Origin: Candidatus Ruminococcus avistercoris
GTDB taxonomy: Bacteria > Bacillota > Clostridia > Lachnospirales > Lachnospiraceae
Direction: 5' to 3'
Assembly (NCBI GenBank): GCA_019120315.1
Contig: DWVJ01000034.1
Span: 121,455 to 185,454, forward strand
Length of the DNA: 64,000 nt
Made by a program: the position numbers and the translations under genes
Part shown: one piece after another, positions 61,536 through 64,000 of the stretch
Layout: each line of letters opens with the position of its first letter
Numbering within the stretch: the stretch's first letter is position 1
The notes under the pieces: model-generated
What the model saw: only the letters and a program-made list of their open reading frames with translations
The model's database searches: none
What the model was told of the DNA's origin: nothing

Positions 61536-61578
61536 ATGGTTAGAATAATACTACCAAATACAAACGGGAGGTGTGGCA

Positions 61579-61866
61579 ATGATTATTCGTCCATCCGCAG
61601 CAATCCGCCAGAATTACAATGAGATTGCCGAAATGTGCAGAAAGACAGCAGAGCCGGTTTTCCTTACCAAGAATGGCGAGGGAGATTTAGTCGTTATGGA
61701 TATTGAAACCTTTAACCGCAGGGAGAAGATGCTGAAACTCCGTGAGGAACTGCTTGCAGTTGAGGAGGACAGGATGCACGGAAACAAAGGTTATTCTGTC
61801 GATGAAGTCGCAGCCATGATGCGCAGCGCAATCAAGGAGGCGACGGGTTGTGGAAAATCAGAGTAA
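61579..61866 (+). CDS. Phd/YefM-type antitoxin
   Basis: A 95-aa antitoxin. The Phd fold is at the N-terminus (IIRPSAAIRQNYNEIAEMC, EPVFLTKNGEGDLVVMDIET, FNRREK); the rest is a helical, charged tail (RMHGNKGYSVDEVAAMMR) that would wrap the toxin. The start is the ATG at 61579, 7 bp after GGGAGG, not the GTG two codons before. Its 3' end overlaps the toxin gene by 17 bp. Phd/YefM proteins repress their own promoter, and a palindrome lies there. Confidence 0.9.
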   Translation: MIIRPSAAIRQNYNEIAEMCRKTAEPVFLTKNGEGDLVVMDIETFNRREKMLKLREELLAVEEDRMHGNKGYSVDEVAAMMRSAIKEATGCGKSE

Positions 61867-62167
61867 ATATCGTATCATCGTATCAGAGCAGACGACGCGG
61901 ATGCTTGTTTCCCACGCCGCTTTTTTGGCGCAGGTCAGTCTGGAAGCAGCGGAAAGGCTGACTGCGGAATTTGAAAAGACGGCAAATTCACTGGAAATCA
62001 TGCCCCAGAGATGCCCGTGGCTTTCCGGGGAATACATTCCTAAAAATGCCTACCGATTTATTTTGTTTGAAAAACGCTATATGATTATCTTTCAAATCAT
62101 AGACGATACCGTCTATGCGGATTATGTGGTGGATTGCAGGCAGGATTACGGATGGCTCATCCGCTGA
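61850..62167 (+). CDS. RelE/ParE-family toxin
   Basis: A 105-aa toxin with YRIIVSEQTTRMLVSHAAFL (N-terminal strand and helices), MPQRCPWLSGEYIPKNAYR and FILFEKRYMIIFQIIDDTVY, then a VVDCRQDYGWLI tail. The RelE/ParE fold is clear, but whether it cuts mRNA or blocks gyrase is not evident. The start is GTG at 61850, with AAGGAGG 9 bp upstream, inside the antitoxin gene. The pair sits between ppdK and an IS110-family element, bracketed by 33-bp repeats, which suggests arrival as a cassette. Confidence 0.88.
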   Translation: MENQSKYRIIVSEQTTRMLVSHAAFLAQVSLEAAERLTAEFEKTANSLEIMPQRCPWLSGEYIPKNAYRFILFEKRYMIIFQIIDDTVYADYVVDCRQDYGWLIR

Positions 62168-62214: not shown

Positions 62215-62370
62215 CTTTTTATATTGAACCGGGTTTTTTATAAAACTTCCGGAATCGGCAATAATAATATATATGATTAGTAAAATATTTTTTTATTGCC
62301 GATACGTGATATAATAACTGTAAATAGATGGAGGAAAGAGTGAAAAATAAAGTAGATTTTTGGACGCACC

Positions 62371-62417
62371 TATATAAGGGTTCATAAAAACCCTGATTTT
62401 AAGGCTATATAGCAATA
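62371..62417. repeat. Nested inverted repeat near the 3' side of the IS110 element
   Basis: CTATATA / TATATAG encloses AGGGTT-cataaa-AACCCT. It lies just beyond the transposase stop, so it may mark an end of the element. The 260 bp between the toxin and transposase genes are otherwise AT-rich with no ORF. Confidence 0.45.
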
Positions 62418-62426
62418 AAATAAAGA

Positions 62427-63578
62427 TTAGTTATCGTTGCGCTTCACTAACTTAGAACTATCGTAACCAAGGCTTTCAAGATAAGCAAAAACATTGTCCT
62501 CATTGAGGACGACTTGCTCCACATGATTACGAGGATCCATCAATTCCTCGTAGTCAGTAGGACTGAAGGGTTTCTTTTCAGATACCATGTGATAAATGCA
62601 GACCACCATCATTGGTTTTAGGTAATCGCCTGCTTTGGAAATCCGGACAGACTTTTTCTTCCCGGCGGATTCGTTGTTGGCAGGCGCAAGCCCACACCAG
62701 GAACATAGATGTTTTGCATCATCAAAAATGTTCATATCAACACCTGTTTCCGCAAGAACAATGGTGGAGCTTAACTCGGTCATTCCGGGCATGGTACTGA
62801 CAAATTCCACAAACTCATAATAAGGCTTGATGCGGACATAGAGTTCCACTTCGGTCTGGGTAATCATATCGTCAAGATATTCCAGATGCCCACGGGCAAG
62901 TTCAAGCTTTTTAGCCTGGTCTGCTTCAATATTGTAGCCTCTGATTGCTTCGATGATTTCATCCGACTTGGCTCTCGCCCCTTTTTTTATGAGTTTGCGG
63001 ACAGCTTTTTCATCCATGGAAGCAGCGGTATGTTCTAACAGATAAGACATGATTTCAGTCGCTGTCCTGCCGAAGGGATCAGAAAGCACACTGGCAATGC
63101 CGACATTGGAAACGGTCATACAGTTTTGGATGCGGTTCTTTTCAGAAGATTTCATGCAGACCAGTTTGAAACGGTACCTGGCAAGTTCCCTGAGCTGGCG
63201 GAAATCCTTGGGAGGAATAAAAGAACATCTGACAAGATCAAATTTGTAGAGGTCGGCGATCCATTTGGAATCCTTTTTGTCCGTTTTCTTGCCTTTGATG
63301 GCTTTGACATATTTGGGATGTGTGAGGCAGACATCGATGTCATTTTCGAGATAATTAAAAATAGGAATCCAATACTTGCCAGTGGATTCCATACAAACAT
63401 GAAAGCAATTATTCTCGATGAGCCAGTTGTGAAACCTTTGGATATCCGAGTTGATGGTTGAAAAAGATTTTTGTTTGTATTCGGATATTCCATCATTGTT
63501 AGTGATTACGATGGTTGCAACGATAACATTTTTGTGGACATCAAGTCCACAGCAGATGGAGTATTTTAACTTCATCAT
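62427..63578 (-). CDS. IS110-family transposase (DEDD recombinase)
   Basis: A 383-aa transposase. The N-terminal RuvC-like DEDD domain has the first Asp in CCGLDVHKNVIVATI, Glu in CMESTGKYWIPIFNYLE, and Asp residues in KGKKTDKKDSKWIADLYKF. The C-terminal Tnp_20 domain has VSTMPGMTELSSTIVLAETG, then CSWCGLAPANNESAGKKKS with the likely catalytic Ser of the ESAGK motif. I start at 63578 (the first of two adjacent Met codons) because AAGGTGG lies about 8 bp upstream. Full length and uninterrupted. IS110 enzymes recombine DNA guided by a bridge RNA, and a candidate is encoded just upstream. Confidence 0.92.
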   Translation of the reverse strand: MMKLKYSICCGLDVHKNVIVATIVITNNDGISEYKQKSFSTINSDIQRFHNWLIENNCFHVCMESTGKYWIPIFNYLENDIDVCLTHPKYVKAIKGKKTDKKDSKWIADLYKFDLVRCSFIPPKDFRQLRELARYRFKLVCMKSSEKNRIQNCMTVSNVGIASVLSDPFGRTATEIMSYLLEHTAASMDEKAVRKLIKKGARAKSDEIIEAIRGYNIEADQAKKLELARGHLEYLDDMITQTEVELYVRIKPYYEFVEFVSTMPGMTELSSTIVLAETGVDMNIFDDAKHLCSWCGLAPANNESAGKKKSVRISKAGDYLKPMMVVCIYHMVSEKKPFSPTDYEELMDPRNHVEQVVLNEDNVFAYLESLGYDSSKLVKRNDN

Positions 63579-63600
63579 AAGTATCACCACCTTAAGAAAA

Positions 63601-63784
63601 AAGGAATAGCAACAGTGACTGTCATCCTGCGACTGAATAAACATGGTTTATTACCAATGATAAGAGTCCGGGCTCAAAGTCCCACTTGTTTGTGCTTGAA
63701 AGGATGACGGCACATATAAGTATACGGGGTCGAAATAAATTCGCCACTCCTCCTTCCGTGCTCTGTAGTATATTGCTATTCCTT
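63601..63784 (-). ncRNA. Candidate bridge RNA of the IS110 element
   Basis: On the minus strand, upstream of the transposase, the 184-nt segment is closed by a 12-bp perfect stem, AAGGAATAGCAA / TTGCTATTCCTT, and followed by TTTTCTT. Inside are an 8-bp stem GTCATCCT / AGGATGAC (63621-63628 with 63701-63708), TGGT / ACCA and a GAGCCCGGACTC near-palindrome. Size and position fit the bridge RNAs known from IS110-group elements (about 177 nt in IS621). Base pairing is seen; RNA status is inferred. Confidence 0.55.
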
Positions 63785-64000
63785 ATAAGAATTATAGATC
63801 AAAGAGTGGAGGGGCACAACTTTTTTCATAACTTGTTTGTGCCTTGAGAGAAGCGAAAGGAATGGTAAAAAGTATGAAAGTATCTGTTCCGCAAAGACGG
63901 GGACAGATTCAAGCGAGATTTTTATGAAGTGGTTAGATGAGGTTCGCCAAAGCACATGGAAGAGATAAAACAGCATTGTGAAAAAGTCATACAGATACTC
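63785..64000. other. Window end without a recognisable gene
   Basis: Only short frames occur. A 7-bp inverted repeat GGCACAA / TTGTGCC lies at 63813-63843. ACTTGTTTGTGC at 63831-63842 repeats a stretch inside the candidate bridge RNA (63684-63695). The 66-aa minus-strand ORF 63776-63976 has no convincing start site or family. Confidence 0.6.

What the first reader, a model, noticed from the sequence alone, without database searches (positions are those of the whole stretch)
63601..63784. Candidate IS110 bridge RNA with a 12-bp closing stem
Upstream of an intact IS110 transposase a 184-nt stretch is closed by a perfect 12-bp inverted repeat, has an internal 8-bp stem and ends in TTTTCTT on the minus strand. 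IS110-group elements encode their bridge RNA at this place. Sequence and length differ enough from the published examples I recall that this could define another guide format.
Basis: partly seen in the sequence, partly recalled or inferred. Interest (0 to 1): 0.7.

Follow-up and report, generated by a model that had tools for sequence, protein, structure and literature searches.

The report
Bridge RNA aimed at gene starts
The hairpin-closed stretch is the guide RNA of an IS110-family jumping gene; its guides read the start codon and ribosome-binding site of host genes, and they lie in the opposite order to the best-studied relative, although this copy's own transposase gene has lost a conserved piece.

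Summary
In detail: a perfect 12-bp inverted repeat (63601-63612 / 63773-63784), an inner 8-bp stem and a U-rich tail lie just upstream of an IS110 transposase on the minus strand. One detail is wrong: the transposase is not intact. It lacks 40 residues that all compared full-length relatives keep.
The bridge-RNA interpretation is well supported. The RNA is conserved in about 125 elements from Bacillota genomes. The closing stem shows compensatory changes in 11 of 12 pairs. An unbiased covariation scan picks out two guide segments: one copies the flank beside the left end (239/255 variable positions identical; 125 when permuted), the other copies the element's right end. Two element subfamilies within one genome carry different guides and sit at correspondingly different sites. 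Empty sites confirm the junctions.
The target is the translation-start signal read antisense: CAT-NN-T(T/A) (start codon), then CCTCC (Shine-Dalgarno). The RNA's other target guide is itself Shine-Dalgarno-like. Along the RNA the order is RT guide, hairpin, LT guide: opposite to IS621/ISEc21 and as reported for IS1111, yet the RNA lies upstream, as in IS110. Start-signal targeting has a precedent in IS900. No Rfam match. New variant of a known kind.

The parts
62336..63869 (-). IS110-family element, LE at the high coordinate, RE at the low one; about 1,534 bp; crossover base T at 63870 (left) and 62336 (right)
   Evidence: ends from alignment of LE and RE of about 30 close relatives with different flanks; empty sites of relatives L013 and L005
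62427..63575 (-). transposase gene with a 120-nt in-frame deletion at about 62614 between GATGATGGT-type repeats; 382 aa instead of 422
   Evidence: Pfam DEDD_Tnp_IS110 1.7e-24 and Transposase_20 1.2e-15 (on the longer frame 62427-63644); deletion by alignment with L083, 91% identical; counterpart segment kept by all compared relatives incl. IS621
63595..63784 (-). bridge RNA, about 190 nt, 5' end at 63784 (inferred)
   Evidence: covariance model hit 205 bits (the window sequence is one of those the model was built from); compensatory changes
63773..63784 (-). 5' arm of the closing stem
   Evidence: perfect 12 bp; 11 of 12 pairs with both-side changes among 36 sequences
63601..63612 (-). 3' arm of the closing stem, followed by the U-rich tail to about 63595
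63744..63757 (-). RT guide GGAAGGAGGAGUGG (Shine-Dalgarno-like; complementary to the top strand of the flank next to RE)
   Evidence: 8 of 9 bases complementary to the window's right flank TCCTCCATC (sequence; coordinates); across elements own-guide pairing above dealt flanks, 28/3000 at fixed register, 5/3000 for best of four registers
63713..63725 (-). LT guide GUAUACUU-AUAUG (same sense as the flank next to LE)
   Evidence: top of unbiased covariation scan; 239/255 variable positions identical
63658..63669 (-). LD guide GGACUCUU-AUCA (same sense as the RE end CACTCTT)
   Evidence: top of unbiased covariation scan; 100/120 against 70 permuted, max 86
63701..63708 (-). 5' arm of the 8-bp stem of the donor domain (other arm 63621-63628)
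   Evidence: the 7 pairs of helix 6 all have some both-side changes, but only 73% of cells pair because MAFFT misaligns the helix in far relatives
63681..63697 (-). AAGCACAAACAAGUGGG, 5' side of the donor domain; repeated in LE; role unknown
   Evidence: near-invariant in 36 sequences
63791..63796 (-). -10 box TATAAT
   Evidence: 84 of 98 distinct relatives have at least 5/6 match near this place; about 30 in shuffles, max 40
63814..63819 (-). -35 box TTGTGC, 17-bp spacer
   Evidence: sequence; weakly conserved
63842..63860 (-). palindrome near LE, CCTTTCGC-TTCT-CTCAAGG; counterparts with different sequence in relatives
63827..63843 (-). LE copy of the GGCACAAACAAGT motif
63870..63879 (-). left target flank TTTCATACTT
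   Evidence: same in relatives G032 and G329 without the element
62322..62335 (-). right flank TCCTCCATCTATTT
62336..62347 (-). RE end TTTTTCACTC-TT

Best explanation
The stretch is the bridge RNA of an IS110-group element. A sigma-70-type promoter inside the left end (-35 TTGTGC, -10 TATAAT) starts a transcript at about 63784; it runs about 190 nt, is tied together by the closing stem and stops in the U tract before the transposase's ribosome-binding site. The closing stem encloses two domains. Domain 1 binds the target: the left flank CAT-NN-T(T/A) is recognised by pairing of the RNA segment YAU-NN-U(U/A) with its bottom strand, and the right flank CCTCC by pairing of the Shine-Dalgarno-like segment GGAGG with its top strand. 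Domain 2 binds the element's own joined ends, with a segment that copies the right end (CACTC-TT). The transposase then recombines at a shared T or A. The site so described is a gene's start codon and ribosome-binding site on the opposite strand, so the element drops between the two. Shown by comparison: RNA conservation, closing stem, left-target guide, right-end guide, target site. Inferred: transcription, binding to the protein, chemistry, the strength of the Shine-Dalgarno pairing. This copy is probably immobile on its own, because its transposase lacks 40 conserved residues.
For: RNA: 36-sequence alignment, 25 of 35 pairs with changes on both sides, covariation score 0.398 against 0.186 shuffled and 0.09-0.14 slid. 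Model found in 38 of 398 sampled Bacillota genomes. Promoter. Target guide: 239/255 (permuted 125, max 152 of 2000), 88/90 within the close clade, 94% at register 0 and at most 54% at other registers. Within Merdibacter massiliensis, guide UAUAUAU: 8 of 8 sites CATATAT; guide UAUUUUU: 7 CATTTTT and 3 CATCTTT. Unbiased mutual-information scans over all RNA positions put the guide diagonals on top. GTG-start cases fit too: L037 guide CACAC, site CACAC; L134 guide UACAC, site CACAC. Start codons: 49 of 52 distinct sites open a frame of 50 codons or more (or to the end of the flank), against 27% of other CATs; 47 of 52 have a Shine-Dalgarno-like 5-mer. Empty sites.
Against: No RNA was observed. 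The stem of the target domain (CAC/GUG) hardly varies, so it has no covariation support. The right-target guide is only weakly supported, since Shine-Dalgarno sequences are present at any gene start and their distance to the crossover varies (0-5 nt). A guide for the left end (RD) was not found. In the window itself the left flank lies inside a reading frame in relatives and the right flank is not homologous to theirs, so this copy's two flanks do not come from one simple insertion.
Confidence: 0.9

Rival explanations
1. The hairpin is a transcription attenuator or terminator in the leader of the transposase mRNA and guides nothing.
For: The 3' arm runs into a U tract right before the transposase's ribosome-binding site.
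Against: Covariation of inner segments with flanking host DNA and with the RE end has no place in this account. A loop of about 160 nt is far too long for an ordinary intrinsic terminator hairpin. Attenuation could still be a side effect.
Confidence: 0.03
2. It is a bridge RNA, but the site is recognised only through the start-codon side; the Shine-Dalgarno-like segment is a structural or protein-binding element, and the Shine-Dalgarno flank is a by-product of insertions surviving at gene starts.
For: The distance of CCTCC from the crossover varies (0-5 nt), no RNA x RT column pair stands out in the scan, and the segment is conserved like a structural element.
Against: Own-guide pairing exceeds that with flanks dealt from other elements (28/3000 at fixed register, 5/3000 best of four), and guides with a longer GGAGG-to-hairpin distance sit at sites with a longer distance (means 1.7 and 3.1 nt, p = 0.002; p = 0.009 without Merdibacter). 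Neither control removes shared ancestry. Cases such as L121 (guide GGGGGUG, flank CACCCC) and L128 (guide GGAGAG, flank CTCTCC) fit pairing.
Confidence: 0.2
3. The target domain keeps the IS621 order and the real RT guide lies 3' of the LT guide, so no reversal of order exists.
For: The stem closing the target domain hardly varies, so the loop borders rest on energy prediction, and no covariation fixes the RT guide.
Against: The GGAGG segment lies 5' of the LT guide and no other GGAGG was seen in the window's RNA (and sequence); a hairpin with some compensatory change (helix 4, one of two pairs) separates them.
Confidence: 0.15

Closest known systems
IS621 bridge RNA (Durrant et al. 2024, PMC11208160; structure PMC11208158)
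   Same: RNA upstream of the transposase on the same strand, about 180-190 nt, two guide domains, a segment copying the left target and one copying the right end, crossover base included in the guides
   Different: IS621 order is LT guide, hairpin, RT guide (checked in an E. coli copy); here RT guide, hairpin, LT guide. [quoted passage not shown] here one long stem closes around both domains. Transposase 326 aa against 422 aa; different targets
seekRNA of IS1111-type elements (Siddiquee et al. 2024, PMC11187229)
   Same: top-strand match 5' of bottom-strand match, as here
   Different: IS1111 RNA usually lies downstream of the transposase and the elements have subterminal inverted repeats; here it lies upstream
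ISEc21 (IS110 type, PMC11187229)
   Same: upstream non-coding region that encodes the RNA
   Different: bottom-strand match 5' of top-strand match, the opposite order
IS900 of Mycobacterium avium subsp. paratuberculosis
   Same: IS110 family; target motif CATGNNNNNNTCTCCTT (PMC8141618), which reads as a start codon and Shine-Dalgarno antisense (my reading)
   Different: host phylum; no bridge RNA of it was compared here

Membership tests
IS110 family (DEDD recombinases) | RuvC-like DEDD domain and Transposase_20 domain | tested here: met
   Pfam PF01548 and PF02371 above cut-off; IS621 and ISCro4 are the solved relatives
IS110 family (DEDD recombinases) | complete transposase in this copy | tested here: not met
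   40 residues missing from the C-terminal domain
IS110 group (against IS1111) | long non-coding region upstream of the transposase | tested here: met
   about 290 nt upstream, about 90 nt downstream
IS110 group (against IS1111) | bottom-strand guide 5' of top-strand guide, as in ISEc21 and IS621 | tested here: not met
   order is reversed, as far as the RT guide is rightly identified; the IS621 copy shows the published order
IS1111 group | RNA downstream of the transposase | tested here: not met
   RNA is upstream
IS1111 group | subterminal inverted repeats of 7-17 bp | not tested
   no systematic search; none evident by eye between LE and RE
bridge RNA | conserved RNA secondary structure | tested here: met
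bridge RNA | guide covarying with target DNA | tested here: met
   left target; right target weak:
bridge RNA | guides covarying with both donor ends | tested here: inconclusive
   right end (LD) met; left end (RD) guide not found:
bridge RNA | binds the recombinase and is needed for recombination | not testable with these tools
   needs protein and RNA
any Rfam family | match to a curated covariance model | tested here: not met
   no match with E up to 1

The most novel reading that the evidence does not exclude
A large clade of IS110 elements in Bacillota carries a bridge RNA that combines the IS110 position with the IS1111 guide order, and has settled on a target that every bacterial genome offers in great number: the ribosome-binding site and start codon, with a Shine-Dalgarno sequence as one guide. 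Mainly two or three guide bases drift, each with its target. It could be an intermediate in the proposed move of the RNA from one end of the element to the other.
Probability: 0.5. Interest if true: 0.65.

Novelty: new variant of a known kind. Interest (0 to 1): 0.5.

Why it matters
It gives a bridge-RNA account of why some IS110 elements sit between ribosome-binding site and start codon (compare the IS900 target motif), and supplies natural reprogramming data: many guides, each with its sites, including two guides in one genome. The reversed guide order in an upstream RNA separates two features that the published examples had tied together (position and order) and so bears on how IS110 and IS1111 RNAs are related. 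A compact, conserved RNA with a built-in promoter and closing stem may also be useful for recombinase engineering.

Tried and rejected
Rfam, permissive: nothing. Near copies in phages: none; plasmids: only transposase-level matches. Complementarity of the 5' side of the donor domain (AAGCACAAACAAGU) to the left end: not found; it repeats LE in the same sense instead. A guide for RD: no convincing diagonal in the scan (one position continues the LT-guide diagonal into LE). Pre-insertion site of the window's own copy: relatives share only the left flank. Extending the model to IS621 and to Mycobacterium, Streptomyces, Citrobacter and Bradyrhizobium IS110 elements: no hit; the Enterococcus one hits at 110 bits. 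First translation of the transposase was one base out of frame and was redone. The query was shorter than planned (2,958 of 5,100 bases), so only about ten sites were tested. A sub-threshold DEDD hit in a 1416-aa frame of the own genome looks like an acyl-CoA-dehydratase activase by its sequence, not a transposase (not scanned).

Full report
What is there. On the minus strand the window carries an IS110-family element of about 1.53 kb (62336-63869). Its transposase gene (62427-63575) matches DEDD_Tnp_IS110 and Transposase_20. Upstream lies the stretch in question. The 12-bp arms, the inner 8-bp stem and the TTTTCTT tail are as described; 1 of 1000 shuffles has an inverted repeat that long. The fold is better than most shuffles (z -2.27). 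Rfam has nothing for it.

The transposase is not intact. Relatives with 82-86% identical protein span 422 residues where the window has 382. Alignment with a 91% identical gene shows a 120-nt in-frame gap at about 62614 between GATGATGGT-type repeats. The lost segment (QCALAA...RIKKRRGHKKAIIAIARMM) is kept by all compared full-length relatives, and its counterpart is kept by IS621. The source genome holds no other DEDD transposase over the Pfam cut-off. A second bridge RNA, on contig C23, is followed by a transposase remnant with a 100-aa frame.

The RNA is real by comparison. The non-coding region aligns in about 30 close relatives and the RNA in relatives down to 42% protein identity. In 36 sequences the closing stem has changes on both sides in 11 of 12 pairs; over the whole structure the covariation score is 0.398, against 0.186 in shuffles and 0.09-0.14 when the partners are slid. 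The structure was partly drawn by me on this alignment, which favours it in these counts; the closing stem, however, was also RNAalifold's own prediction. The covariance model finds the RNA in 38 of 398 Bacillota genomes and, in all, in about 125 elements. A -10 box lies most often 6-8 nt before the closing stem (84 of 98 relatives with at least 5/6 match within the stretch examined; shuffles 30, max 40), so the transcript probably begins with the closing stem. In the window this is TTGTGC, 17 bp, TATAAT.

Target guide. The flank beside the left end reads CAT-NN-T(T/A) in most elements. The RNA carries YAU-NN-U(U/A) in the same sense. Taking the flank by a landmark inside LE, independent of the guide, the three variable positions agree in 239 of 255 cells (85 distinct pairs; permuted 125, max 152 of 2000), in 88 of 90 within the close clade, and not when the register is shifted. 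In Merdibacter massiliensis two subfamilies of the element have different guides; all 8 copies of one and 7 of 10 of the other sit at the matching sequence, the other 3 differing at one base. A scan of all RNA positions against all flank positions ranks this diagonal first. Permutations do not remove shared ancestry; the within-genome comparison and the register control are the best guards here.

Donor guide. The right end reads CA-NN-C-T(T/A), and the RNA copies it at 63658-63669. The scan ranks RNA 127 and 126 with LD-4 and LD-5 first; 100 of 120 cells agree, permuted 70, max 86, even though a few right ends in that count were mis-anchored. The last base (T or A) agrees among left flank, right end and both guides in nearly all elements, while the base before it may differ between target and donor. 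The effective core therefore looks like one base.

What the target is. In 49 of 52 distinct insertion sites the CAT is the reverse of an ATG that opens a frame of at least 50 codons (or to the end of the flank), against 27% of other CATs nearby, and 47 of 52 have a Shine-Dalgarno-like 5-mer just upstream. Two sites read CAC, a GTG start, and there the guides read CACAC and UACAC. Uninterrupted sites in relatives of two elements (L013, L005) join the two flanks without gain or loss beyond the crossover and nearby drift. The element thus enters between ribosome-binding site and start codon. IS900 has the like motif CATGNNNNNNTCTCCTT (PMC8141618).

Order of the guides. The GGAGG of the RNA (most often GGAGGUGAG) lies 5' of the LT guide, with a hairpin between. 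[quoted passage not shown] In the window 8 of 9 bases pair. Across elements its own flank pairs better than flanks of other elements (28/3000 at fixed register; best of four registers 5/3000), and the spacing of GGAGG in the guide goes with the spacing in the target (p = 0.002). This is moderate evidence. IS621 in E. coli, read in the same way, shows LT guide (AUCGGGCCU) before RT guide, with flank ATCAGGCCT, as published (PMC11208160). The IS621 RNA sequence used as the probe came from memory; its 100% match beside an annotated IS621 transposase is the check. Siddiquee et al. report the IS621-like order for ISEc21 and the reverse for IS1111 elements (PMC11187229). The present family has the reverse order with the RNA upstream. 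Whether one of the six elements drawn by Durrant et al. already shows this I could not see; figures are not held.

Limits. The window ends at or near the end of its contig. Its left flank lies inside a 143-aa reading frame of relatives, the right flank is an unrelated Shine-Dalgarno-like sequence, and relatives do not join the two. This copy has mixed flanks, by recombination between copies or by assembly. The conclusions on target choice rest on relatives. No guide for the left end was found.

Noticed in passing
window 63827-63860 and 63681-63697: Near the left end a palindrome (different sequence but kept as a palindrome in relatives) is followed by GGCACAAACAAGT, which recurs in the same sense in the donor domain of the RNA. 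Role unknown.
   Followed up: partly
L060, L078, L032 upstream of the transposase: In L060 and L078 the LE motif runs directly into the RNA copy of GCACAAACAAGT, as if a deletion between the two repeats had removed promoter and target domain while keeping donor domain and transposase start; L032 also lacks the target domain.
   Followed up: no
window 63870-64000: Left flank is the 3' part of a 143-aa reading frame in relatives (L113 532-963); the rest of that frame was not found in the assembly.
   Followed up: yes
L144 1938-2135 (own genome, contig C23): A second, diverged bridge RNA (128 bits) with a transposase remnant sits directly upstream of a 743-aa reading frame; its left flank CATTTTA and guide CCUUUUA fit the same target type.
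   Followed up: partly
window 61573-62167: A Phd/YefM-like antitoxin and ParE-like toxin pair lies beside the right end of the element.
   Followed up: partly
left ends of relatives: LE keeps a CAT 12 nt inside the target CAT, so an in-frame ATG behind GAAAGGA would read into the target gene after insertion; the element may supply a substitute translation start.
   Followed up: no
L159, L163 (Citrobacter and Bradyrhizobium IS110 elements): Their upstream regions contain GTGGTGAC..GATCCCGTT and TGACCCCGT.AAAAAAC stretches that resemble pieces of this RNA, although the model does not hit; the format may reach beyond Bacillota.
   Followed up: no
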